51,160 nucleotides of DNA from Gammaproteobacteria bacterium (GTDB lineage Bacteria; Pseudomonadota; Gammaproteobacteria; Xanthomonadales; Wenzhouxiangellaceae): NCBI GenBank assembly GCA_003567685.1, contig PWYW01000100.1:1-51160 (forward strand), given 5' to 3'. Positions 29,843 to 42,325 of this stretch are shown piece after piece. Under the pieces are notes generated by a model. It saw only the letters and a list, made by a program, of their open reading frames with translations. It ran no database searches and was not told where the DNA came from. A program made the position numbers and the translations under genes. Within the stretch, counting starts at the first letter, position 1, and every line of letters begins with the position of its first letter.

Positions 29843-31417
29843 TTACTCCCACTCAATCGTGGCTGGCGGCTTGCCCGAGATGTCGTAGACCACCCTTGAG
29901 ACGCCATCGCATTCGTTGATGATGCGGCGCGAGACATGGTCAAGGAACTCATGATCGAGATAGGCCCAGCGAGCGGTCATGAAATCGATGGTTTCGACGG
30001 CACGCAGGGCAATCACGTACTCATAGCGCCGCGCATCGCCGACCACGCCGACGGATTTCACCGGCAAGAAAACGGCGAAGGCCTGGCTGACCTGGTCGTA
30101 AAGATCCGCCTTGCGCAATTCGCTGATGAAAATGTGGTCGGCTTTCTGCAGCGGCCCGACAAATTCCGGCTTGACCTCGCCAAGAATCCGAACCCCCAGT
30201 CCCGGACCAGGAAACGGGTGGCGCATGACCAGTTCGGCCGGCAAACCCAGCTCGATACCAATCTTGCGCACTTCGTCCTTGAACAACTCTCTGAGCGGCT
30301 CGACCAGCTTCAGATTCATGTCGGCCGGCAGACCGCCCACGTTGTGGTGCGACTTGATCACCTTCGCCTTGCCGGTCGAGGCGCCCGCCGATTCAATCAC
30401 GTCCGGGTAAATCGTGCCCTGGGCCAGCCAGGAAGCCTCCTGATGACTCTTGGCGGCCTGCTCGAACACCCGGATGAACTCTCGTCCGATGATCTTGCGC
30501 TTTTCTTCCGGGTCGGACACGCCGGCCAGCGCGTTCATAAACTGGTCGCGCGCGTTGATGCGCTCTACCCTTACGCCCAGGTGCTCGGCAAAGGTCGCCA
30601 TCACCTGGTCGCCTTCCTGGTAGCGCAGCAGGCCGGTGTCGACAAAAATGCACAGCAATTGGTCGCCAATGGCCTCATGCAAAAGCGCCGCGACCACGGA
30701 AGAATCCACGCCACCAGACAGGCCCAGCAACACCGTATCGCTGCCGACTTGCTCGCGCACCCGGGCAATCTGGTCATCGATGATGGCACCCGTAGTCCAG
30801 CTCGCCGAGCAGCCACAAATCTCGAGCACGAAACGCTCCAGAATGCGCCGGCCCTGACGGGTATGGGTGACTTCCGGGTGGAACTGGAGACCGTAAAAAC
30901 GGCGCTGATCGTCGCCCATGCCAGCAATCGGTGCTGACGGCGTCGTGCAGATCGTGCTGAAGCCTTCGGGTAGCGTCGTGACCTTGTCGCCGTGGCTCAT
31001 CCACACTTCGAGCTGGCCCTTGCCGTCAGCGTTGACCCGGTCTTCGATACCGTGCAAAAGATCGGAACCGGAATCGATACTGACCTCCGCATAGCCGAAT
31101 TCCTTCTCGTCGGAAGGACTGACCTGGCCGCCAAAATGCGTAGCCATGGCCTGCATGCCATAGCAGATGCCCAACAGGGGCAAACCCAACTCGAACACCA
31201 TTGCGGGAATACGCGGGCTGTCATGAACAGCCACCGATTCAGGCCCGCCAGAGAGAATGATACCGGTCGGGTTGAATGCGCGGATGGCCTCGTCACCGAC
31301 GTCATACGGCAGGATTTCGGAGTAAACCCCGATTTCGCGCACGCGGCGGGCAATCAGCTGGGTGTACTGCGAGCCGAAGTCGAGAATCAGGATTCGGTGG
31401 GCATGAATGTCGGTCAT
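29843..31417 (-). CDS. guaA: GMP synthase (glutamine-hydrolysing)
   Basis: 524 aa, standard length. It converts XMP to GMP with ATP and glutamine. N-terminal class I amidotransferase domain with nucleophile Cys85 (GICYGMQA) and the His/Glu pair in QFHPEVTHT; the ATP pyrophosphatase domain follows with the P-loop LSGGVDSSV. The C-terminal dimer domain has [15 protein letters not shown] and ends PPATIEWE. It follows guaB by 6 bp on the same strand, the classical guaBA arrangement. Confidence 0.98.
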
Positions 31418-31423
31418 GGTCTG

Positions 31424-33386
<1,963 letters not shown>

Positions 33387-34073
33387 ATGAACAAGCTTGT
33401 TGTTTCCAGCCTGGCGCTGGCCCTTGCCATGCCCGTTACAGCGTTTGCCGCGGGCGGTCACTACCCTGTCGACGATGTCGATGTGGGCGAGCCGGGTGAT
33501 TTCATCATCGAGTCGTTCTTCACCCGTTTCGACGGCGACAACAGCGAACTCGGCTTCCAGCCCACCTGGCGTCCCGGCCAGGCCCCGCTGGAGTTGGTCG
33601 CTGGTCTGATTCGCGTCGAGGAAGACGGCGAATCCATCAACCGTTTCGAGCCGCAGCTCAAGTACCAGCTGGCCCCCATGGAAGCCGGTCGCTGGGGCTC
33701 GGCGGTGTACCTGCACGCCGGCATTGAAGATTCCGACTTCAACGACCTGCTGCTGAACTTCCCCTTCAGCTACGAGTTTCGCGATGCACCGGTGGCCATC
33801 CACGCCAATATCGGCCGGATCCACGGTCGCGGTGGCGACGAGGAGGTCGATCGGGTTTTCCTCGGCGGAGCGTTCGAGTGGGGCTTTGCCGACTCTGTCG
33901 ACCTGATCGGTCAGGTCTACCGCGAAGGTGCCGATGAAGCAGTCGAATCCCAGCTCGGTCTGCGCTTCCACTTCGATTCACCGGTGGAGTACATCGACCT
34001 GGCCGTTAGCCGCGTGCTCAGCGGTGACGACAAGGACTGGTTCGCCACCGTCGGCTTAGGCCTGGCGTTCTGA
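33387..34073 (+). CDS. Small outer-membrane beta-barrel-like protein
   Basis: 228 aa with a clear signal peptide (MNKLVVSSLALALAMPVTAFA). The mature part alternates polar and hydrophobic residues in strand-like runs (SAVYLHAGIED, LIGQVYREG, SQLGLRFHFDS, WFATVGLGLAF) and ends in Phe, the usual C-terminal signal for barrel assembly. The ribosome site GAGG is 6 nt from the ATG. It is strongly acidic (many Asp/Glu), which may suit cation passage. No named family was recognised with confidence; YfaZ-like or general porin-like are possibilities. As first gene of the cation locus it may be the outer-membrane port for the same ions, by inference from position. Confidence 0.65.
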   Translation: MNKLVVSSLALALAMPVTAFAAGGHYPVDDVDVGEPGDFIIESFFTRFDGDNSELGFQPTWRPGQAPLELVAGLIRVEEDGESINRFEPQLKYQLAPMEAGRWGSAVYLHAGIEDSDFNDLLLNFPFSYEFRDAPVAIHANIGRIHGRGGDEEVDRVFLGGAFEWGFADSVDLIGQVYREGADEAVESQLGLRFHFDSPVEYIDLAVSRVLSGDDKDWFATVGLGLAF

Positions 34074-34087
34074 TCAGGAGCAATCCC

Positions 34088-34372
34088 ATGAACCGCAATG
34101 ACGTAATTCAAATCCTCGCCCTGGTTCGCCTGGGTCGCTTCGAGCGCCTTGACGCCGTGCTGGCCGACTGCAGCCAGCACGACCTTACCGAGGCACTCGC
34201 CCGACTCGACGGCAATGACCAGATTGCGTTGCTCGACCGACTGGAAGAGCCGGCCCGCTCCGCCGCCCTGATGGCGCTGGACTACGCCGATTGGCTTCGC
34301 CTGGTCGACAACGCCGGCCCCGTGCGGGCCCAGAGCCTGATTGCGCCGGCCGTTGCCGCGCCGTCTGCCTGA
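34088..34372 (+). CDS. Free-standing MgtE N-domain-like mini-protein 1
   Basis: 94 aa, entirely helical in appearance, no signal peptide. It aligns by eye, without gaps, with the first 75 residues of the full-length MgtE encoded at 38733: shared pattern I-x-(L/I)-LAL-x-(L/R)-LGR near residue 8, then an acidic helix, (D/H)-(I/L)-x-EA-(I/L)-x-x-LD, and a Leu-rich third helix. That region of MgtE is the cytoplasmic superhelical N-domain that senses Mg2+ and gates the channel. The gene ends 25 bp before an MgtE that lacks this domain, so the mini-protein may supply it in trans. The tail AAPSA is short and disordered. Confidence 0.75.
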   Translation: MNRNDVIQILALVRLGRFERLDAVLADCSQHDLTEALARLDGNDQIALLDRLEEPARSAALMALDYADWLRLVDNAGPVRAQSLIAPAVAAPSA

Positions 34373-34397
34373 ATCAACGAATAAAAGGACTTATCCA

Positions 34398-35468
34398 ATG
34401 ACTAACCAATTCTCAATCAACATGATCAACAGCGCTGCCGGCATGGTGGTCTCCGGGGACTTAAGCGACTCCATTGGCGGCCTGCGCCGCACTGACTTCG
34501 CCTTCGTCACTGTCGACGCCAAGGTCTCCGATGCCCTGAACAAGATTCGCGATTCGCAGGCGCCGGATGAGGTCAGCAACAAGGTGTTCGTCGTCGATGC
34601 CGCGGGCAAGTACCAGGGTTTTGTTCGCCTGGCGCGTTTGCTGCGCAGCCCAGCCGAGCAGTCGATTTCCGAGCTGGTGGAAGGCAAGGATATCGCCATG
34701 CCCGAATCCACCCATCGCGAAACGGCGGCCCGCCAGCTTCAGCGTCTGGACATCTCTTCGCTGCCCATCACCGACGCCAACGGTCGCCTGACCGGCATCC
34801 TGCGTTTTGATGACGCCATGGACGTGCTTGAAGAAGAAGCCTCGGAAGACATGTACAAGAAGGCTGGCCTGAGCGGCATTCACGCGAAAGATTCGATTCG
34901 CTCTGAACTGCTGACCAGCGGCCCGCTGCACTACCCGATTGGCGTACGCCTGATGTTCCTGATGGTGACCCTTGCCGGTGGCCTGATGGTCGGTGGCCTG
35001 GTGGATTTCTTCGAAGACACCCTGGCCGCTGTTATCGCGCTGGCCGTCTTCGTACCGCTGGTCATGGATATGGGCGGCAACGTCGGCACCCAGTCGACCA
35101 CCATCTTCGCCCGCGGCCTGGCCCTGGGCCATATCAACCTCGACCGCTTCTGGCGCAAGCACATGCTTCGCGAAACCGTCGTCGGGGTCGCCATGGCCGC
35201 GATCATTGCCGTGGTTGCCGGCACCATCGCCTACTTCTGGCAGGGTGCACCGAACGATCTGCCGCTGCTGGGCGTTGTGGTTGGCGGCGCCTTGTTCTTT
35301 TCGGTCCTGACCGCAGCACTGCTGGGCTTCCTGCTGCCCTTCATCATGCTGAAGATTGGCGTTGACCACGCGCCGGGGGCCGACCCCTTCATCACCACCA
35401 TCAAGGATTTCACCGGCCTGGCCGTGTACTTCCTGCTGGCTGGCGCCCTGCTGGGTATCTCGACCTGA
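34398..35468 (+). CDS. MgtE-type Mg2+ channel lacking the N-domain (CBS and membrane domains only)
   Basis: 356 aa from ATG 34398 (AAGGA 8 nt upstream); family members are usually about 450 aa. The first 30 residues are a short linker; two CBS domains follow (about 32-98 and 98-155, VFVVDAAGKYQGFVRL and LPITDANGRLTGILRFDDAMD), then the plug-helix region and five membrane segments (about 195-356). The pore motif near the end, ITTIKDFTGLAVYF, keeps the Asp (337) corresponding to the selectivity-site Asp of Thermus MgtE, and PLVMDMGGNVGTQ is the conserved TM2-3 loop. The N-domain is absent from this polypeptide, and the similar mini-proteins encoded just before and just after may replace it. Confidence 0.88.
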   Translation: MTNQFSINMINSAAGMVVSGDLSDSIGGLRRTDFAFVTVDAKVSDALNKIRDSQAPDEVSNKVFVVDAAGKYQGFVRLARLLRSPAEQSISELVEGKDIAMPESTHRETAARQLQRLDISSLPITDANGRLTGILRFDDAMDVLEEEASEDMYKKAGLSGIHAKDSIRSELLTSGPLHYPIGVRLMFLMVTLAGGLMVGGLVDFFEDTLAAVIALAVFVPLVMDMGGNVGTQSTTIFARGLALGHINLDRFWRKHMLRETVVGVAMAAIIAVVAGTIAYFWQGAPNDLPLLGVVVGGALFFSVLTAALLGFLLPFIMLKIGVDHAPGADPFITTIKDFTGLAVYFLLAGALLGIST

Positions 35469-35485
35469 TCTGATCGGGCAAAACC

Positions 35486-35514
35486 GGGCGCCGGGCAAAG
35501 GCCCGGCGCCCTTT
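35486..35514 (+). terminator. GC-rich hairpin terminator or attenuator after the split MgtE
   Basis: A perfect 11-bp stem (35486-35496 with 35501-35511, loop AAAG) followed by TTTACTT, 17 bp after the MgtE stop. The interrupted T-run suggests partial termination, so genes downstream may be expressed at a lower level or from a further promoter. Confidence 0.6.
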
Positions 35515-35543
35515 ACTTGGCATTAACGATAGCAAGGAGCATC

Positions 35544-35768
35544 ATGATGACGCACATTCAACCTCGACTGACTCGCCGTGAACTGCAGTCACTGATCCGT
35601 CGCCACGCCTGGACTCGTCTGGCCCGTCGGCTGAAAACGGCTGACCCCAGTGACATCGCCGCGCAGATGCCCGGACTCCACCCCAACCAGCGCGCGCTGG
35701 TCGCCCGTCTGCTGGATTCGCGGGAACCTTCGGCCAAGGCCACAGGGGCCGCCACAGGTCCGATGTAA
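35544..35768 (+). CDS. Free-standing MgtE N-domain-like mini-protein 2
   Basis: 74 aa from ATG 35544, or 73 from ATG 35547; AAGGAG lies 4-7 nt upstream, a strong ribosome site. Very basic (many Arg) first half. The pattern LTRRELQSLIRRHAWTRL, then ADPSDIAAQMPGLHP and RALVARLLD, follows the helix-DIA-helix rhythm of the MgtE N-domain (compare QDIAEAISQLDDE in the full-length MgtE). It is shorter and more divergent than mini-protein 1 and ends in a Gly/Ala-rich tail. The homology is inferred by eye. The charge contrast with mini-protein 1 (acidic versus basic) could allow the two to pair. Confidence 0.6.
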   Translation: MMTHIQPRLTRRELQSLIRRHAWTRLARRLKTADPSDIAAQMPGLHPNQRALVARLLDSREPSAKATGAATGPM

Positions 35769-35833
35769 ACTAGTACGTCGATCCAGGCGCCTGAGCCATC
35801 GCTCGAACGCCTGGAATACTCTGGAGACCGAAT

Positions 35834-37045
35834 GTGAATTCGACCGACTCAAAAAAAGCCCGCGAGAGCACTACCGCTGCGCTGCAACAGGCAGCTGCGC
35901 GATCGCGCGCCGCTGATACGGCTGACGCCAAGCGCGCCACCTGGATTGCCGCTGCGCTCGACGGTTTTCTGGGTGCCGTCAAGGTAGTCACCGGTTTGGT
36001 TGTGGGCTCGGCGGCGCTGATCGCCGATGGCATCCACTCGGTTTCCGACCTCATCACCGACGGCTTCGTTCTGGCCGCCACCCACTATGGCCGGCAAGGG
36101 CCGGATCACGATCACCAGTACGGTCACGGCCGCATCGAAACGCTGGCGACCTTGCTGCTCGGCAGCGTGCTGATTTTCGTCGCCGGCGCGATTGTCTGGG
36201 CCAGCATGTACCGACTGGCCACTGGCGTCCAGATTTCGCCTCCCGGGCTGATCGCCATGCTGATCGCCCTGCTGGCAATGATCAGCAAGGAAGCCCTCTT
36301 TCATTACACCATGCGGGTAGCGAAGCGCACCAAGTCCAAGCTGCTGGAAGGCAATGCCTGGCATTCACGCACGGATGTTCTCTCGACGGGTGCGGTATTG
36401 GTCGCTCTGGTCGGAGCCCAGTTCGGTGCCGGCTGGATGGATGCGGTTGCCGCTGCCCTGGTGGGCATCCTGGTCGGCAAAGTTGGCTGGGACCTGGTCT
36501 GGGAATCCGCCCGTGAGCTGGTGGATACCGCCGTGCCCCCGGAAACGCATCAACGGCTGGAAGAAACCGCCATAGCGGTCGCCGGCGTGGAGGGGGTTCA
36601 TGACCTTCGAACCCGACAGTCCGCAGGTCGGATCATGGTGGATTTGCACATCGTGGTGGCCCCGAAGATCAGCGTGTCGGAAGCCCATGAAATCGGCAAC
36701 GAAGTCAGCCGCCAGATGCGCGCAGCCTGCAAGGACATTGCCGATGTCACTTTCCACATCGACCCGGAAGACGACGAAGGACAGGGTGACCCCAGTCAAC
36801 TGCCCGGCCTGCCATTGCGCCCGGCCGTGGAAGCCATGCTGGAGGAACGCTGGTCACCATTGCCGGCCTGGACCGCGATTCACGAGGTCCGTTTGCATTA
36901 CCTGGATGACAAGGTCAGCCTCGAAGTCTGGCTGGATCCGAACGGTCAACCCGTGGTCGACCAAACACTCGCTGCTCAGCTCACCAAGACCCTGGACGAC
37001 CTGCCCTGGTTAGATGAGGTTCAAATCGTCGGCCGCCTGACCTAG
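35834..37045 (+). CDS. CDF-family divalent metal exporter
   Basis: 403 aa from GTG 35834 (GGAG about 8 nt upstream; an out-of-frame ATG overlaps it). Cation diffusion facilitators export Zn, Mn, Fe or Co in exchange for protons. Six membrane segments with the paired metal motifs ADGIHSVSD in TM2 and NAWHSRTD in TM5 (each a His-x3-Asp). A His-rich loop, GPDHDHQYGHGR, follows TM2. The cytoplasmic C-terminal domain (from about residue 245) starts with the expected ferredoxin-like fold and is followed by an extra region of about 90 residues (EERWSPLPAWTAIHEVRLHY and on) that repeats that style. Ion specificity is open; context suggests Mg-related or Mn export. Confidence 0.9.
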   Translation: MNSTDSKKARESTTAALQQAAARSRAADTADAKRATWIAAALDGFLGAVKVVTGLVVGSAALIADGIHSVSDLITDGFVLAATHYGRQGPDHDHQYGHGRIETLATLLLGSVLIFVAGAIVWASMYRLATGVQISPPGLIAMLIALLAMISKEALFHYTMRVAKRTKSKLLEGNAWHSRTDVLSTGAVLVALVGAQFGAGWMDAVAAALVGILVGKVGWDLVWESARELVDTAVPPETHQRLEETAIAVAGVEGVHDLRTRQSAGRIMVDLHIVVAPKISVSEAHEIGNEVSRQMRAACKDIADVTFHIDPEDDEGQGDPSQLPGLPLRPAVEAMLEERWSPLPAWTAIHEVRLHYLDDKVSLEVWLDPNGQPVVDQTLAAQLTKTLDDLPWLDEVQIVGRLT

Positions 37046-37059
37046 TCGGGGAGCACCTG

Positions 37060-38652
37060 ATGCATTTCATCAACCTAGTCGGCGGCATATTGCTGATCCT
37101 GCTCGGGCTTCGAACCCTGCGCAAGGGGTTTGCCCGGGTAACCGGCGGTGACCTGCTTGACTGGCTGCAAGACTTCACCCGCACCCGGCTGCGTGCCCTG
37201 ATTGGCGGCATCGCTGCTGGCGTTGTCATGCCCTCATCCACGGCCATGGCCATGCTGTCGGTCGACATGACCCGTGACGAACGGGCCAACTGGCGCAACG
37301 TACTGGCCGTTTTGCTGGGGGCGCAACTGGGCATCACCGTGCTGGTTCAGGTGCTGGCCTTCAACCTGCAGGACTATGTCGGCATTCTGCTCGCCGTGGG
37401 CGGCGTATTGTTCCTGTTTATCGAACGCTCCCGCCCCAAAGGAATTGGGCAGGCTCTGCTGGCGTTGGCCTTTATCTTGATTGGCATGGGCTTCATTTCT
37501 TCGTCAGCCGCGCAGATTGGCGGCGACCCGGCGGTCGAAAACCTGTTTGCCGCTCTGGCCGCCCTGCCCTGGCTGTTCCTGATTGGCGCCCTGCTGCTGA
37601 CCCTGGCCGTGCAGTCCTCCACCGCCTCGATCGCCCTGGCCCTCGGTCTGGTTGCCAGTGGTCAGGTCAGCCTGGAAATGCTGCTGTTATGGGTAATCGG
37701 CGCCAATATCGGCTTGTGCCTGACTGCACTGATTGCCGGCTGGGCCAGGCTGGACGCGCGGCGGCTCGGTCTGGCCGTACTGCTGATCAAACTACCGCTG
37801 GCGCTGGTTTGCGTGGCACTGGTTCAGGGGCTGGGCACAGCCACGCTGGAAACCTTGCCTGGCACTACCCATCAGCAGGCTGCCTGGGCACACACGCTGT
37901 TCAATCTGGTCGCTTGCCTGGCCATCGCTGCGGCCTCGCCACTGGAGAACCTGACCCGCAGCCTGATCCCGCCACCACCAGAGCAAGGCGAAGACAGCGA
38001 CCCGTCGCGACTCGACCCGCTGCTGCTGCAAAACCCGGCGCTGGCCATCAACGCCGCGTTGCGCGAAACCCTGCGGATCTTTGACACTTTGCACGTCATG
38101 CGGGAAGAAATTGTCGGGCAGATACGCGAGGGTGCCATCCGTGACGGCTTGGCCATTGGCATCGCGCGGCGCAGCCGCCGCATCCTCAAGAATCGCGAGG
38201 ACATGATGCGTTTCCTTGATGCCGTACCCGACGACGCGCTGGGCGCCGACGATGCCAGCCTGAAAGAGACCATGGACGATTTCCTGCGCGAACTGCCGCT
38301 GATCGTCCGGACGCTGGGCCGCGAACTGCTTGATGAAACCCAGACACTGCTCGAAAAGCACATTGATGAACTGCCGGGCTACCGGGACCTGTTGCTGGAA
38401 GCCTCCGACCGGTTGGGACGGCAAATGGAGAGCGTATCCAGAATGCTGCTGCAAGAGCGCCCGGAACTGGGTCGGGAAATCCTCAAGAACAAGCGCGACA
38501 ACAGCAGCTGGCTGATCCGCCACAAGCGCTCTAGAAGCGACCTGCCGATGTCGGCCTGGGAAATCCTCGACGACTTCCAGCAACTCAACCGCCGCCTGAG
38601 CGGCGTGGCCTACGTGTACTGCCGGGATGAGCCGGGAGTGGATGGTCTTTAA
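37060..38652 (+). CDS. Na+/phosphate cotransporter family protein with PhoU-like tail
   Basis: 530 aa, ATG 14 bp after the CDF stop with GGGGAG 6 nt upstream. Two inverted Na/Pi-cotransporter repeats (PF02690) carry the hallmark Ser-Ser-Thr motifs MPSSTAMAM (residues about 57-65) and VQSSTASIALALG (about 186-198). After a Pro-rich linker near residue 310, a helical PhoU-like domain runs from about 330 to 525. Bacterial relatives (NptA/YjbB type) move phosphate, some as exporters. Cotranscription with a metal exporter and MgtE genes suggests balancing of Mg2+ and phosphate. Confidence 0.88.
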   Translation: MHFINLVGGILLILLGLRTLRKGFARVTGGDLLDWLQDFTRTRLRALIGGIAAGVVMPSSTAMAMLSVDMTRDERANWRNVLAVLLGAQLGITVLVQVLAFNLQDYVGILLAVGGVLFLFIERSRPKGIGQALLALAFILIGMGFISSSAAQIGGDPAVENLFAALAALPWLFLIGALLLTLAVQSSTASIALALGLVASGQVSLEMLLLWVIGANIGLCLTALIAGWARLDARRLGLAVLLIKLPLALVCVALVQGLGTATLETLPGTTHQQAAWAHTLFNLVACLAIAAASPLENLTRSLIPPPPEQGEDSDPSRLDPLLLQNPALAINAALRETLRIFDTLHVMREEIVGQIREGAIRDGLAIGIARRSRRILKNREDMMRFLDAVPDDALGADDASLKETMDDFLRELPLIVRTLGRELLDETQTLLEKHIDELPGYRDLLLEASDRLGRQMESVSRMLLQERPELGREILKNKRDNSSWLIRHKRSRSDLPMSAWEILDDFQQLNRRLSGVAYVYCRDEPGVDGL

Positions 38653-38732
38653 CCAAAAACTACCGCGCTCGACCATGAACCGTGACATACGTGTAATCAT
38701 TAACGGGCAAATACTGGATCAAAGGCAAAAGA

Positions 38733-40106
38733 ATGTCGGAAAAAGGTGCAATTATCGAGTTACTGGCCCTGCTGAAGCTGGGCCGAGACACCGAGCTGAA
38801 CGAACAGCTGGAAGAAATGGCCGTGCAGGATATTGCCGAGGCCATTTCCCAGCTCGACGACGAAAGCGAACGCCTTAAACTTCTGATGTCTCTGCAGCAA
38901 GAACGCAGAACCGACACCTTTTCCTACTTGCCCCACAGCCTGCAGCGAGAGATGCTGGTCTCACTGGACGACCGCGACTCACGAAAGATCCTGCACGAGT
39001 TGGTCCCTGATGATCGGACGGCCTTTCTCGAAAATCTTGATGCCGAGGAACTCGAGGGCTTCCTCAAGCTGCTGGCACCGGAAGACCTGAAACAGTCGCT
39101 GAAGCTGCTGGGCTATCCGGAAGAGTCGATCGGGCGCCTTATGACCCCCCGATTTGTCTCGGTTCGCCCCCAGTGGACCGTCGCCCGTGCCTTGGATCAT
39201 ATCCGGCACGAGGCCAACCGGGGCGAGACCGTCAACTTCGTGTTCGTCACGGACAATCGCGGACGCCTTCTGGATGCCGTCAAGCTTAAAGATTTCATCC
39301 TGGCTCGCCAGGACGCGAAAGTTGAAACCCTGATGGACGAGGAGTACTACTCAGTCCAGGCCTCCGCGGACCGGGAAGAGGCCGTTCAGGTTATCCAGCA
39401 CTATGACATCAACACGCTGGCGGTGACTGACAAGAACGGCATGATGTTGGGCATCGTGACCGTGGATGACATCATGGACGTCGCCGAGCAGGAAACCACC
39501 GAGGACTTCCACAAACTTGGCGCAACCGGTAACGTCAACATCTCGATCCGTGAAGCAAGCCCGGCATTTCTCTATCGCAAACGAATTGGCTGGCTGATGA
39601 TCCTGGTCCTGGTCAATCTGGTATCAGGCCTTTCGATTGCCATGTTCGAAGACGCCATTGAAGCCGTCATCGCGCTGGTGTTCTTCTTGCCCCTGATCAT
39701 TGCCAGTTCGGGCAATGCTGGCTCTCAATCCGCCACCCTGATGGTTCGAGCGCTGGCCATTGGTGACGTCGACACCAAGGATTGGTTGCGCCTCTGGGGC
39801 AAGGAGTTTTCTGTAGCACTTGCCCTAGGACTGACCATGGGACTGGCCGTGTCCGTGATCGGCGCCTGGCGTGGTGGGCCGGATCTGGCCGTTCAATTGG
39901 CCATGGTGGTTGGATTTGCCATGCTTGCGGTCGTGATCATGGGGGCAATGATCGGGATGCTGCTTCCGTTCCTTCTGCAACGCTTCAACATGGACCCGGC
40001 AACGGCCAGTACACCCTTGATTACGTCTGTCGCCGACGTAGTCGGCATCCTGATTTACTTCTCGATCGCCAGTGCCATCCTGAGCCTGCCAAGCCCGCTA
40101 AGCTAG
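38733..40106 (+). CDS. mgtE: Full-length MgtE magnesium transporter
   Basis: 457 aa, the standard size. Residues 1-130 form the N-domain superhelix (IIELLALLKLGR, DIAEAISQLDDES), 130-255 two CBS domains (GRLMTPRFVSVRP, then LAVTDKNGMMLGIVTVDDIMD), a connecting plug helix, and five membrane segments (about 285-455). FFLPLIIASSGNAGSQS is the conserved TM2-3 region, and the pore Asp435 lies in TSVADVVGILIYF. Mg2+ binding between the cytoplasmic domains closes the channel when the cell is replete. It lies 80 bp after the phosphate transporter with only a weak ribosome site (AAAGG). It is the in-window reference for recognising the split version at 34088-35768. Confidence 0.96.
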   Translation: MSEKGAIIELLALLKLGRDTELNEQLEEMAVQDIAEAISQLDDESERLKLLMSLQQERRTDTFSYLPHSLQREMLVSLDDRDSRKILHELVPDDRTAFLENLDAEELEGFLKLLAPEDLKQSLKLLGYPEESIGRLMTPRFVSVRPQWTVARALDHIRHEANRGETVNFVFVTDNRGRLLDAVKLKDFILARQDAKVETLMDEEYYSVQASADREEAVQVIQHYDINTLAVTDKNGMMLGIVTVDDIMDVAEQETTEDFHKLGATGNVNISIREASPAFLYRKRIGWLMILVLVNLVSGLSIAMFEDAIEAVIALVFFLPLIIASSGNAGSQSATLMVRALAIGDVDTKDWLRLWGKEFSVALALGLTMGLAVSVIGAWRGGPDLAVQLAMVVGFAMLAVVIMGAMIGMLLPFLLQRFNMDPATASTPLITSVADVVGILIYFSIASAILSLPSPLS

Positions 40107-40128
40107 CGGGCCAATCACTCACAATCAG

Positions 40129-40719
40129 CTACTGCTTGACCCAGCGATAAAACCGCATTGGCGGAATGTTCAACCATTCCATTTGCACATCAGGCGTGCC
40201 CATTTCCGGGGCCCCCAGCCGACCGACGTGGCCGCGAAACTGATAGGCCAGGAAAATGCCACCGGGCGCAAGGCAATCCCGTACAGCGCGGATGATGGAC
40301 TGGCCAATCTCCTGCGGCATGGTCGAAAACGGAATGCCGGAGATGACCGCATCCGGTGCCGGAAGCGAATGCTCTTGCAGGATGTCGGCGATATCGGTGG
40401 CGCTGCCGGTGTGCGGTATAAGGCGCGGGTCACCGAGTGCTTCCAGAAGCTCTGAAAAACGCGGATCCAGCTCGATGGTCAGCAGACGACTCTGCGACGG
40501 CATGGCCTCGAGCAGGGCCTTGGTGGTGCCACCGGTGCCTGGCCCAAGCTCGACCACGCAGCGGGCGTTGGCAAGATCAGCCGTCCTGACCAGCCGCTCT
40601 TCGAGGAAGCGGGAGCTGGGTATTACCGATCCGACCTGGCCAGGACTTCTCAGAAAGCCGCGAAAGAAATCGAACCCTCGAACCGAACGCCGAGAGCCGC
40701 TTGCCGATGAATTTGCCAA
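40129..40719 (-). CDS. Phospholipid N-methyltransferase-like SAM methyltransferase
   Basis: 196 aa; the only usable upstream start is TTG 40719. Class I SAM fold: FFRGFLRSPGQVGSVIPSSRFL (PmtA-type N-terminal motif), then VVELGPGTGGTTKALL as the SAM-binding motif I, TIELDPRFSE, and the NPPF-equivalent loop reads VISGIPFSTMP. This group methylates phosphatidylethanolamine towards phosphatidylcholine in some bacteria and is otherwise misannotated as rRNA adenine dimethylase. Substrate not proven. It is convergent with mgtE. Confidence 0.8.
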   Translation of the reverse strand: MANSSASGSRRSVRGFDFFRGFLRSPGQVGSVIPSSRFLEERLVRTADLANARCVVELGPGTGGTTKALLEAMPSQSRLLTIELDPRFSELLEALGDPRLIPHTGSATDIADILQEHSLPAPDAVISGIPFSTMPQEIGQSIIRAVRDCLAPGGIFLAYQFRGHVGRLGAPEMGTPDVQMEWLNIPPMRFYRWVKQ

Positions 40720-40984
40720 GAGACTGGAACCCTGTTTTGAACCCGCCTGATTCTATCAGCCAACTCCGTTGCCGCCTACACCCGCCAACAGGATTTCTGC
40801 GCATCGGGAAAGAGTCGGCAACAGGGGTTTACCTGCCAAGCGTTTGGCGGTATCCTTTCGCGCCTCGAATGACTTGATCAACGGCCCCTGACATGAGGCC
40901 TTTGGTCGAATAAGCGGTTCGCAAGAATCGCCTGCCTGGAACGGCCGCCAAGCATCGGCGAAAAGGTGCAACAATACAGTTTAC

Positions 40985-41137
40985 GGAGAGGTGGCCGAGT
41001 GGCTGAAGGCGCTCCCCTGCTAAGGGAGTATAGGGTTAAAAGCCCTATCGAGGGTTCGACCCGAGCGCAGCGAGGACGATGCGCGCCAGCGCACCCGAAG
41101 GGCAAGCCCTGAAAGGGCGCAGTCAATCCCTCCCTCG
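40985..41137 (+). pseudogene. Interrupted tRNA-Ser(GCU) copy
   Basis: The first 75 bases (40985-41059) are identical to the intact tRNA-Ser at 41210: acceptor 5' strand, D-arm, anticodon loop CTGCTAA and variable arm. After TTCGA in the T-loop the sequence switches to a 66-nt GC-rich insert (41060-41125) and then resumes ATCCCTCCCTC. The acceptor 3' strand is damaged: CCTCGTG instead of CCTCTCC, with no CCA. Only 4-5 acceptor pairs remain, so it is unlikely to be a working tRNA unless the insert is removed. Confidence 0.85.
41060..41125 (+). other. 66-nt GC-rich insert in a tRNA-Ser T-loop
   Basis: It begins CCCGAGCGCAGCGAGG and ends GGGCGCAGTCA. Internal short stems: TGCGC/GCGCA and CCC/GGG pairs. 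It interrupts the conserved T-loop between TTCGA and ATCCCT. A different but related insert, also starting CCGAGC(C)GCAG(G)CGAG, occupies the same T-loop position in the tRNA-Ser fragment at 42797-42864. It is not a group I intron (too short) and has no reading frame. Confidence 0.75.
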
Positions 41138-41209
41138 TGCGATTCGCAAGAATCGCCTGCCGGAAACGGCCGCCAAGCATCGGCGAAAAGGTGCAACAAT
41201 ACAGTTTAC

Positions 41210-41302
41210 GGAGAGGTGGCCGAGTGGCTGAAGGCGCTCCCCTGCTAAGGGAGTATAGGGTTAAAAGCCCTATCGAGGGTTCGAATCCCTCCCTCTCCGC
41301 CA
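41210..41302 (+). tRNA. tRNA-Ser (anticodon GCT)
   Basis: 93 nt including encoded CCA. Acceptor GGAGAGG pairs with CCTCTCC; discriminator G; anticodon loop CTGCTAA in stem CTCCC/GGGAG gives GCT (reads AGC/AGU). Long variable arm, TAGGGTTAAAAGCCCTA; T-arm GAGGG-TTCGAAT-CCCTC. This is the intact one of the tandem pair. Confidence 0.97.
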
Positions 41303-41311
41303 TCATTAAAG

Positions 41312-41335
41312 AACCCCGCCTTGGCGGGGTTTTTT
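41312..41335 (+). terminator. Rho-independent terminator of tRNA-Ser(GCU)
   Basis: 8-bp stem AACCCCGC/GCGGGGTT (41312-41319 with 41324-41331), 4-nt loop, T-run 41330-41335. Flanking ATTAAA/TTTAAT extends it symmetrically. The same terminator type recurs at both ends of the tRNA-Ser fragment on the other side of the two-gene cassette. Confidence 0.9.
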
Positions 41336-41371
41336 AATGATCCAAACATCAAACTCCTCTAATATAGAGGG

Positions 41372-42325
41372 ATGAACTCCCAACCCACCCCCTTTTGCGC
41401 CCACATCCCGCTGCCGCTGTTTGCCTCCGTGATGGGCCTGTGTGGCCTGGCCATGGTCTGGCACAGCGCTGCAATACACTGGCAGTTTTCATCCCTGCCA
41501 GCCGACCTGATCACGCTTCTGGCGGCGATCGTTTTCGGCCTGTTACTGATGCTTTACGGCTACAAAGTTGTAGCCTGCGGCGACCGGGTGATGGCAGAGC
41601 TGCGCCATCCCGTCCGGATAAATTTTCTGCCAACCCTTTCTATCAACCTGATCCTGCTTGGAATTCTTTCCCGTGAATGGTTGCCGTCGGCATCGCTCTG
41701 GCTATGGATGACCGGGGCGGCATTTCAACTGCTGTTCACCCTGATCATCGTCACCATCTGGATTGAAAGCGAGCGGCCCAGCGCCAGCATCAACCCGGCC
41801 TGGTTCATCCCCGCCGTCGGCAACGTCCTGGTACCCATCGCCGCAGTCCCGGCTGGATATCCCATGGTCGGGTGGTTCTTCATGGCCATCGGCCTGTTTT
41901 TCTGGCTGACCATGAACACCATCGTGTTCTATCGCCTGATCACCAAGCCGGCACTGGAAGACCCGATGCGGCCGACGCTGATGATCCTGCTGGCACCACC
42001 GGCAGTAGGCTTCATGGCTTGGGTCAATCTGGCTGGCCAGGTTGATGCCTTCGCCACCCTGCTCTACCTCATGTCCGTATTCATTGCCGCACTGCTCGTT
42101 CTTCAGGTACCGCGCTTCATCAAACTCCCATTTTTTCCATCCTGGTGGGCTTACACGTTCCCAATGGCCGCCTTTACCAGTGCGTCATTTCGTTTCCTGC
42201 CACTACAGCAGACAAGCATCGACCCGATCCTGGCTTTCCTCGCCGGACTGTCGACACTGGTCATTCTGACCGTGGCAGCCCGAACGCTGCTTGCTGTCGT
42301 TCGAGGGGAACTGGCGGGCCATTGA
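41372..42325 (+). CDS. TehA/SLAC1-type (TDT family) anion channel or dicarboxylate transporter
   Basis: 317 aa with ten predicted membrane segments. The N-terminus (PLPLFASVMGLCGLAMVW) is the TDT family hallmark, and AWFIPAVGNVLVPIAA matches the TM5 region of TehA. FWLTMNTIVFYRLI and PSWWAYTFPMAAFTSAS are further family segments; the latter holds the region of the pore-gating Phe of TehA. Members pass small anions or dicarboxylates or export tellurite and sulfite; the cargo is not known here. It sits between two inverted tRNA-Ser loci together with a cupin gene. Confidence 0.88.
   Translation: MNSQPTPFCAHIPLPLFASVMGLCGLAMVWHSAAIHWQFSSLPADLITLLAAIVFGLLLMLYGYKVVACGDRVMAELRHPVRINFLPTLSINLILLGILSREWLPSASLWLWMTGAAFQLLFTLIIVTIWIESERPSASINPAWFIPAVGNVLVPIAAVPAGYPMVGWFFMAIGLFFWLTMNTIVFYRLITKPALEDPMRPTLMILLAPPAVGFMAWVNLAGQVDAFATLLYLMSVFIAALLVLQVPRFIKLPFFPSWWAYTFPMAAFTSASFRFLPLQQTSIDPILAFLAGLSTLVILTVAARTLLAVVRGELAGH

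What the first reader, a model, noticed from the sequence alone, without database searches (positions are those of the whole stretch)
34088..35768. Split MgtE: a channel without its N-domain flanked by two free-standing N-domain-like mini-proteins
Seen: a 356-aa MgtE (34398-35468) starts at a short linker before its CBS domains and lacks the roughly 130-residue N-domain. Directly upstream is a 94-aa protein that aligns by eye and without gaps with the N-domain start of the full-length MgtE encoded at 38733. Directly downstream is a 73-74-aa basic protein with the same helix-DIA-helix pattern. Known: in Thermus MgtE the N-domain senses Mg2+ and helps gate the pore, and D337 keeps the selectivity-site Asp. 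Inferred: the gating domain is supplied in trans by one or two subunits, which would permit hetero-oligomeric control. I know of no described MgtE built this way.
Basis: partly seen in the sequence, partly recalled or inferred. Interest (0 to 1): 0.85.

Follow-up and report, generated by a model that had tools for sequence, protein, structure and literature searches.

The report
Magnesium channel with detached clamp-like proteins
In some bacteria, largely from soda lakes, a magnesium channel of the MgtE type lacks its built-in N-terminal clamp domain, and small separate proteins related to that domain are often encoded right beside it, which gives a natural system for asking what the clamp does.

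Summary
The anatomy is real. The 356-aa MgtE has CBS and pore domains but no N domain. Both neighbouring mini-proteins are distant MgtE_N relatives: mini-1 clearly (profile E=2.7e-6; AlphaFold model best matched by MgtE N domains), mini-2 by profile only (E=7.4e-6; no Pfam hit). A frameshift is excluded: the split recurs in a second genome, and the missing half-domain is in no forward frame.

The channel belongs to a rare MgtE clade. A small MgtE_N-like gene (4 of 24 broken) lies near 24 of 37 N-less copies, but also near 6 of 13 full-length proteobacterial copies, so the minis are not simply replacements. Mini-1 and mini-2 each cover about half of the domain and lack the Thermus Mg2+ ligands E59, D91 and D95.

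Best reading: free-standing, fast-evolving accessory subunits that dock on the CBS/plug part and modulate the channel, probably not as Mg2+ sensors. Binding is untested; remnants or a role on the full-length paralogue remain possible. Mini-2 lies behind a terminator-like hairpin.

Unexpected: the operon starts with a covarying leader RNA (33088-33225) absent from Rfam, which precedes mgtE in relatives: a riboswitch candidate.

The parts
33048..33075 (+). sigma-70-like promoter candidate (TTGACA, 16 nt, TATTGT) ahead of the leader
   Evidence: consensus scan, 10 of 12 matches; not proof of function
33088..33225 (+). conserved structured leader RNA, candidate riboswitch, upstream of the operon
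   Evidence: 14-sequence alignment, 31 pairs, 17 with a change on both sides, 0 of 500 shuffles as high; no Rfam match above chance; one match in the genome
33387..34073 (+). 228-aa protein with a signal-peptide-like start (read by eye); outer-membrane role inferred only
   Evidence: no Pfam family; own profile finds relatives in 11 loci of this MgtE clade including the window and next to classical MgtE in 8 of 27 control loci
34088..34372 (+). mini-1: free-standing MgtE_N-like protein, 94 aa
34398..35468 (+). N-domain-less MgtE channel, 356 aa (two CBS, plug, TM)
35486..35511 (+). terminator-like hairpin between channel and mini-2
   Evidence: 11 GC pairs plus T-rich tail; three such sites found in the stretch against 2.6 expected by shuffling
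35544..35768 (+). mini-2: free-standing MgtE_N-like protein, 73-74 aa, basic
   Evidence: no Pfam or NCBIfam hit
35834..37045 (+). cation diffusion facilitator (CDF) transporter
   Evidence: PF01545 and PF16916
37060..38652 (+). Na/Pi-cotransporter-like protein
   Evidence: PF02690
38733..40106 (+). classical full-length MgtE paralogue
   Evidence: PF03448, CBS, PF01769; TIGR00400 359.7 bits

Best explanation
The locus encodes an N-domain-less MgtE-type channel of a distinct clade plus free-standing relatives of the MgtE N domain that act as accessory subunits. SHOWN by sequence: the channel keeps CBS, plug helix and pore but lacks the N domain; mini-1 and mini-2 are half-length MgtE_N homologues under purifying selection; mini-1 (25 bp upstream) and the channel lie with a signal-peptide-bearing protein behind one structured leader RNA; comparable small MgtE_N-like genes recur beside this MgtE clade in other bacteria. 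INFERRED: the minis dock on the CBS/plug dimer where the N domain sits in Thermus MgtE and shift the open/closed balance as a clamp, in trans. Because mini-1 and mini-2 lack the N-domain Mg2+ ligands while the channel keeps the CBS/plug ones, Mg2+ would still be read by CBS and plug, and the mini would set gain or state through its abundance or a partner. Mini-1 is the likelier partner of the channel; mini-2 may serve the full-length MgtE or both.
For: Homology; of ten other minis given to Pfam, MgtE_N is the top family in 10, with E<0.004 in 9 (I chose ten, mini-2 was not among them and has no hit); reversed-sequence controls. Fold: the model of mini-1 made from two mini-1 sequences only (pLDDT 81.7) has MgtE structures as its top three Foldseek hits (weak E 0.36-0.59; prob 0.99, 0.97, 0.69) and as its top six rows by Z (10.4 to 8.7; an insect lipoprotein follows at 8.3); the Rhodobacteraceae mini also ranks an MgtE first (Z 8.3, FliG next at 7.6). 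Linkage: 24 of 37 N-less loci have a small MgtE_N-like gene on the same strand within about 1.1 kb (23 by profile; L046 by reading) against 1 of 27 classical MgtE loci, itself a mini-2 (shorter flanks). In 29 genomes searched whole, the Rhodobacteraceae mini profile finds only channel-side minis and the N domains of two full-length MgtE. Selection. CBS/plug/pore ligands kept. Leader RNA.
Against: No binding or gating evidence exists. Mini-1 and mini-2 each cover about half of the domain. E59/D91/D95 are absent from both, and among ten full-length members of the clade E59 is kept in 1, D91 in 5, D95 in 0. 13 of 37 N-less loci show no mini (L075 ends 228 bp after the channel), and 4 of the 24 minis are broken (L054, L065, L068, L119), so the mini is dispensable or decaying in some lineages; one family genome without the channel holds a broken mini (G126). 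Minis also accompany 6 of 13 full-length proteobacterial members. Mini-1 fits the classical N-domain profile better than the clade's own (24.9 versus 20.6 bits). Mini-2 is separated by a terminator-like hairpin. Of five Rhodobacteraceae pairs, the dN/dS interval reaches 0.97 in one and 1.06 in another. Fold-search E-values are weak and helical repeats give middling Z by chance (notes).
Confidence: 0.43

Rival explanations
1. The minis act on the full-length MgtE paralogue, or the N-less channel itself pairs with the full-length paralogue as a heterodimer that lends one N domain; the mini-channel pairing is then incidental.
For: A full-length MgtE lies within the fetched flank in 13 of the 36 N-less loci scanned, and also downstream in the L046 genome. 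Mini-1 resembles the classical N domain most. In G022 mini-2 sits next to a full-length MgtE, and that genome has no N-less channel match.
Against: 23 of 36 scanned loci show no second full-length MgtE within the flank (flanks are limited, some contigs short). In Rhodobacteraceae the mini follows the N-less channel. The listings show no MgtE heterodimer (listings only; one search was too broad to count).
Confidence: 0.22
2. The minis are remnants: mini-1 is the leftover 5' end of an mgtE gene displaced when the N-less channel was inserted behind the gene at 33387, and other minis are decaying duplicates with little or no function.
For: In 8 other loci the order is leader, 33387-type gene, full-length MgtE (in L015 with mini-2 between), so mini-1 plus channel stand in the place of a full-length gene. 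Minis evolve fast (mini-1 44% versus channel 85% identity). Several Rhodobacteraceae minis are broken or absent.
Against: Intact start, ribosome-binding-like site and stop in both species at dS about 1.2, with dN<dS in 299 of 300 bootstraps. A downstream mini cannot be the leftover N-terminus of its own channel gene. Strong constraint in one pair (mini-2 L042 versus L046, dN/dS 0.06). Twelve Rhodobacteraceae minis share 26 invariant positions, including C-terminal P, G and R outside the MgtE_N-like part.
Confidence: 0.22
3. The minis use the MgtE_N/FliG-like helical fold for something unrelated to channel gating, such as assembly or turnover of the channel, or work with the 33387-type protein or the CDF transporter.
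For: FliG-type domains are the next best fold and profile neighbours of some minis, and such modules are general adaptors (recalled). The 33387-type gene is a recurrent neighbour.
Against: MgtE_N, not FliG, is the best family in 10 of 10 minis tried; no other shared neighbour that I looked at is as constant as MgtE.
Confidence: 0.13

Closest known systems
Thermus thermophilus MgtE (PDB 2YVX, 2ZY9; Pfam PF03448-CBS-PF01769)
   Same: CBS pair, plug helix and pore with the D432 site equivalent (D337); CBS/plug Mg2+ ligands retained
   Different: No N domain in the chain; the window's N-domain-like proteins are separate and lack E59, D91 and D95 equivalents; Asp224 stands at the gate glycine G325
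Laboratory N-domain deletions of MgtE (Thermus delta1-129; B. subtilis delta1-137, PMC3435302)
   Same: Similar boundary: channel without N domain
   Different: Here natural, found in many loci, and often accompanied by free MgtE_N-like proteins. The two deletion studies disagree on whether loss opens or closes the channel (passages of PMC3435302)
MgtE homologues of Archaea and SLC41 of animals without CBS domains (PMC9276622, passages)
   Same: MgtE pore without the full cytosolic part
   Different: They lack CBS too; no companion N-domain proteins are mentioned in the passages seen
FliG middle/C-terminal domains
   Same: Same helical-repeat fold neighbourhood as MgtE_N and the minis
   Different: Flagellar rotor proteins; weaker matches than MgtE_N
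mgtE motif riboswitch candidate of Thioalkalivibrio (PMC11109978, passages)
   Same: Structured RNA upstream of an mgtE gene in haloalkaliphiles
   Different: Reported only from Thioalkalivibrio; whether it is the same RNA as the leader found here could not be checked; our model finds none in the Thioalkalivibrio loci searched

Membership tests
MgtE channel (channel 34398-35468) | MgtE transmembrane domain PF01769 | tested here: met
   114 bits, cut-off 27.6
MgtE channel (channel 34398-35468) | CBS pair | tested here: met
   PF00571, 45.3 bits, two stretches
MgtE channel (channel 34398-35468) | MgtE_N domain in the same chain; NCBI mgtE equivalog | tested here: not met
   no PF03448 match; TIGR00400 217.8 bits, under its cut-off 232.75. 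Filed as a PF01769 channel, not as a canonical mgtE equivalog
MgtE channel (channel 34398-35468) | pore Asp (Thermus D432) and CBS/plug Mg2+ ligands | tested here: met
   D337; E108, D118, D139, D142, E147, E150, D151 align with E216, D226, D247, D250, E255, E258, D259
MgtE channel (channel 34398-35468) | Mg2+ transport | not testable with these tools
   needs complementation or flux assay
MgtE_N domain (mini-1) | Pfam PF03448 above curated cut-off | tested here: not met
   20.4 bits against 25.9, E=7.5e-4
MgtE_N domain (mini-1) | statistical homology to MgtE N domains | tested here: met
   E=2.7e-6 among 11,236 ORFs; profile-profile 1.7e-8, reversed 2.4e-3
MgtE_N domain (mini-1) | MgtE_N helical fold | tested here: met
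   top six rows are MgtE, Z 10.4-8.7, below the Z of about 13 that helical repeats can reach by chance, so moderate weight; predicted model
MgtE_N domain (mini-1) | full domain with Mg2+ ligands E59, D91, D95 | tested here: not met
   Ala at 59, region of 91/95 absent
MgtE_N domain (mini-2) | Pfam PF03448 match | tested here: not met
   no Pfam family at E up to 10
MgtE_N domain (mini-2) | statistical homology to MgtE N domains | tested here: met
   E=7.4e-6; profile-profile 3.8e-7, reversed 0.07; first half of the domain only
Trans-acting N-domain subunit | physical complex of mini and channel | not testable with these tools
   no complex prediction on offer; needs co-purification

The most novel reading that the evidence does not exclude
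A Mg2+ channel clade has turned its N-terminal clamp into separate, exchangeable accessory proteins, with free-standing versions that differ between lineages in position and in the part of the domain kept. Most of these proteins have dropped the Mg2+ ligands, so that gating is set by subunit supply under a new leader RNA, not by the clamp's own Mg2+ binding.
Probability: 0.27. Interest if true: 0.82.

Novelty: new variant of a known kind. Interest (0 to 1): 0.6.

Why it matters
The role of the MgtE N domain is disputed: deletion of it was reported to favour the open channel by one group and to blunt activity by another (PMC3435302, passages). A natural N-less clade with detached relatives of the domain lets the clamp be added or left out without protein engineering. 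It also links Mg2+ uptake to a habitat (soda lakes; recalled to be poor in free Mg2+) and brings a candidate RNA switch with it.

Tried and rejected
Frameshift or assembly error: rejected. All three forward frames from 34088 to 34460 were scanned; only mini-1 itself matches the N domain (profile positions 7-83), and the second half of the domain is absent. The second genome (L041, same contig as L045) shows the same two separate genes. L059 shows what a real frameshift in this family looks like: its N domain is in another frame just upstream.

Known riboswitch upstream: Rfam gathering scan of 30000-42000 gives only a tRNA; permissive scans of the window leader (best E 1.3) and of seven loci (best E 0.047 and 0.22, both animal microRNA families under their cut-offs) give nothing credible.

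N loss as several independent events: not decided. The 43-row tree needs 2 changes, and holding the 25 N-less rows together is not rejected (p-AU 0.454). L124 (Nodosilinea) was not in that tree; it looks like a further N-less copy with a mini 36 bp downstream, but its first CBS domain is also shortened, so it is not among the 37 N-less loci.

Rows dropped: L064, L094 and L119 (broken or aberrant frames) from the tree and the ligand table, which also leaves L046 and L059 out of its groups; L094 from the N-less list; L046 (contig starts inside the channel) from the ORF scan. E-values of about 0.05 and above were treated as noise unless the Rhodobacteraceae profile supported them, because reversed ORFs reach 0.055; minus-strand hits in L049 and L113 were discarded.

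The structure of mini-2 was not predicted (only two jobs; too short to be diagnostic).

I lowered the best explanation by 0.02 and the novel case by 0.01, and raised the remnant rival by 0.02, after finding the broken mini in a genome without the channel.
Full report
WHAT IS THERE. On the + strand the order is: structured leader 33088-33225, 228-aa protein with a signal-peptide-like start 33387-34073, mini-1 34088-34372, N-less MgtE 34398-35468, terminator-like hairpin 35486-35511, mini-2 35544-35768, CDF transporter, Na/Pi-like protein, full-length MgtE 38733-40106. Mini-1 starts 14 bp after the 228-aa protein and ends 25 bp before the channel; ribosome-binding-like sites precede mini-1, channel and mini-2 (read by eye).

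ARE THE MINIS MgtE_N RELATIVES. Pfam gives mini-1 a sub-threshold match (E=7.5e-4) and mini-2 none. I built a profile from MgtE N domains (full-length members of the clade and classical ones) and searched 11,236 six-frame ORFs of the fetched loci and the window: mini-1 E=2.7e-6 (positions 7-83 of about 128), mini-2 E=7.4e-6 (positions 8-57). The best reversed-sequence value was 0.055. Profile-profile comparison agrees and the reversed controls are far weaker. Mini-2 is also picked up in the control loci, in G022 (L015, E=6.2e-4). AlphaFold gave mini-1 six helices with pLDDT 81.7 from two mini-1 sequences only; its top three Foldseek matches are MgtE cytosolic domains, though with weak E-values (0.36-0.59), and its six best rows by VIA-align are MgtE (Z 10.4 to 8.7; an insect lipoprotein follows at 8.3). 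Mini-1 is thus well supported, and mini-2 by sequence profiles only.

NOT A FRAMESHIFT. The second half of the N domain is found in no forward frame between 34088 and 34460, and the 25-bp gap could not hold it. A second genome (G016; L041 and L045 are the same contig; channel 85% identical) has mini-1 and channel as two genes as well. Mini-1 is 44% identical between the two, yet intact, with dN/dS 0.47 (bootstrap 0.23-0.77) against 0.13 for the channel.

A CLADE, AND A RECURRING THEME. A scan of the collection of 84,980 species genomes with the three channel orthologues confirmed 125 relatives; the best 80 were returned. The 76 rows aligned share Asp at the position of Thermus G325 ('VMDMGGN'; the scan used that peptide as a pattern, so this is partly selection). 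Record titles name Thioalkalivibrio, Ectothiorhodospira, Natronohydrobacter, Billgrantia and Alkalilimnicola, many metagenome genomes whose isolate codes I recall as soda-lake samples, and also Cyanobacteria, Chloroflexi, Actinobacteria and Verrucomicrobia. The clade is rare: besides the query genomes themselves, 2 of 368 sampled genomes of the window's class and 0 of 294 of the Natronohydrobacter family match at E<=1e-70.

I count 37 N-less proteobacterial loci including the window. A small MgtE_N-like gene lies on the same strand near the channel in 24 of 37: 3 of 3 Wenzhouxiangella, 18 of 25 alphaproteobacteria, 3 of 9 other gammaproteobacteria (L046 by reading). Four of these 24 are broken (L054, L065, L068, L119). 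13 of 37 show none (L075 ends 228 bp after the channel). In the control set of 27 classical MgtE loci, with flanks of about 1.5 kb or less, one has such a gene at E<0.1 with the same profile, and it is a mini-2. Full-length members also have free minis: 6 of 13 proteobacterial ones (L048, L055, L081 just upstream; L071, L077, L080 about 4.7 kb downstream) and a cyanobacterium, L107. Ten minis scanned against Pfam all have MgtE_N as top family, 9 with E<0.004, 3 above the curated cut-off. The Rhodobacteraceae mini profile (A4) finds, in 29 genomes, only minis next to the channel and the N domains of two full-length MgtE. In 295 family genomes its strong matches are all in the genome that also has the channel; of three weaker ones (E 2.2e-5 to 9.5e-4) one is a full-length MgtE N domain, one (G126) is a mini broken over two frames in a genome without the channel, and one was not followed up.

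WHAT THE RESIDUES SAY. In Thermus MgtE mutants of the N-domain ligands D91 (with D247) and D95 fail to close, and E59 affects the N domain and plug (PMC5882242, passages). Mini-1 has Ala at 59 and lacks the 91/95 region; mini-2 lacks all three; 10 of 12 Rhodobacteraceae minis have Ala at 59 (the other two were aligned out of register). Two minis do carry acids there: L060 (D at 91, E at 95) and L083 (E at 91, D at 95). Of ten full-length clade members aligned, E59 is kept in 1, D91 in 5 and D95 in 0. The N-less channels keep the CBS and plug ligands: E216 and D226 in 33 of 34 (one gap each), D247 in 31, D250, E255, D259 and D432 in 34; E258 is Asp in 25 and Glu in 9. By contrast, the 13 full-length proteobacterial members have Val at 216. 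So Mg2+ reading by CBS and plug can persist, while the window's detached N-like proteins are unlikely to read Mg2+ as in Thermus.

ORIGIN. On a 43-row tree N-less and full-length states need two changes; one N-less clade is not rejected (p-AU 0.454). In 8 of 27 control loci, all from the window's genus, a full-length relative of the 33387 gene lies directly ahead of a full-length MgtE, and the leader lies ahead of both (L015 has mini-2 in between). Thus mini-1 plus N-less channel stand where a full-length MgtE stands in relatives. Mini-1 fits the classical N-domain profile better than the clade's own (24.9 versus 20.6 bits in the window, 31.4 versus 19.4 in L045; that profile contains many same-genus sequences). 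Mini-1 may therefore descend from a classical MgtE N-terminus that was kept in service, or be its remnant.

LEADER RNA. A DNA search with the leader finds it in 14 of 61 genomes (the window's own included), all in the same genus. In 12 of 14 the MgtE match begins about 0.5 to 1.5 kb downstream on the same strand; in G005 about 2.8 kb; in G015 the stretch ends just after the leader (compared by coordinates). A motif search of held loci added one sequence from another genus (L011) and one from another gammaproteobacterium (L086). The 14-row alignment gives 31 pairs, 17 with a change on both sides; 87.5% of cells pair against 32-43% for slid structures, and 0 of 500 shuffles reach any of five measures. 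The structure was derived from the same alignment and the rows are related, so these controls flatter it somewhat. The model finds, apart from training rows and other fetches of their genomes (L020, L023, L045), L099 (76.8 bits), upstream of a 33387-type gene (there broken in two frames) and an N-less channel as in L086. Rfam has no credible match. A published 'mgtE motif' is restricted to Thioalkalivibrio (PMC11109978, passages); our model finds none in the Thioalkalivibrio loci. The ligand is unknown; Mg2+ is a guess.

JUDGEMENT. The inference of a trans-acting gating subunit is plausible but must be weakened: half-domains, ligands gone from the window's minis, presence beside full-length channels, and losses in several lineages. 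I did not see a description of free-standing MgtE_N companions of MgtE in the listings (open-licence papers only; two searches were broad and returned unrelated papers). I saw passages of PMC5882242, PMC8104411, PMC3435302, PMC9276622 and PMC11109978, and otherwise listings with starts of abstracts.

Noticed in passing
window 33088-33225: Conserved covarying leader RNA with no credible Rfam match, upstream of the operon; in most other genomes of the genus that have it, it lies upstream of mgtE, and in L086/L099 upstream of a 33387-type gene and N-less mgtE. Candidate riboswitch.
   Followed up: yes
window 33387-34073: 228-aa protein with a signal-peptide-like start and no Pfam family; profile relatives sit near MgtE in Wenzhouxiangella, Thioalkalivibrio, Billgrantia, Alkalilimnicola and others. 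Possible outer-membrane partner for Mg2+ uptake.
   Followed up: partly
window 34398-35468, residue D224: Asp replaces the gate-kink glycine G325 of Thermus MgtE in 76 of 76 aligned rows of this clade (the scan pattern included this peptide). May mean altered gating or ion choice.
   Followed up: partly
L060:9954-10612 (minus): Two successive MgtE_N-like mini-genes directly upstream of a full-length MgtE on the minus strand, besides a third mini downstream of the N-less channel on the plus strand.
   Followed up: partly
L041:2520-3170 and L044:3476-4138 (minus): GDT1-family divalent cation/proton antiporter (PF01169) just ahead of the leader RNA in two relatives.
   Followed up: partly
L068 and L078: Natronohydrobacter thiooxidans AH01 has two copies of the full-length MgtE, N-less MgtE, mini cluster; in one copy (L068) the mini is split over two frames.
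   Followed up: no
L059:5292-6119: Halorhodospira abdelmalekii MgtE appears frameshifted between N domain and CBS: an example of what an artefactual 'split' looks like.
   Followed up: no
L124:6994-7428: Nodosilinea: a short MgtE without N domain followed after 36 bp by an MgtE_N-like gene (Pfam E=6.6e-10); its CBS1 is also shortened, so it may be a degraded paralogue.
   Followed up: partly
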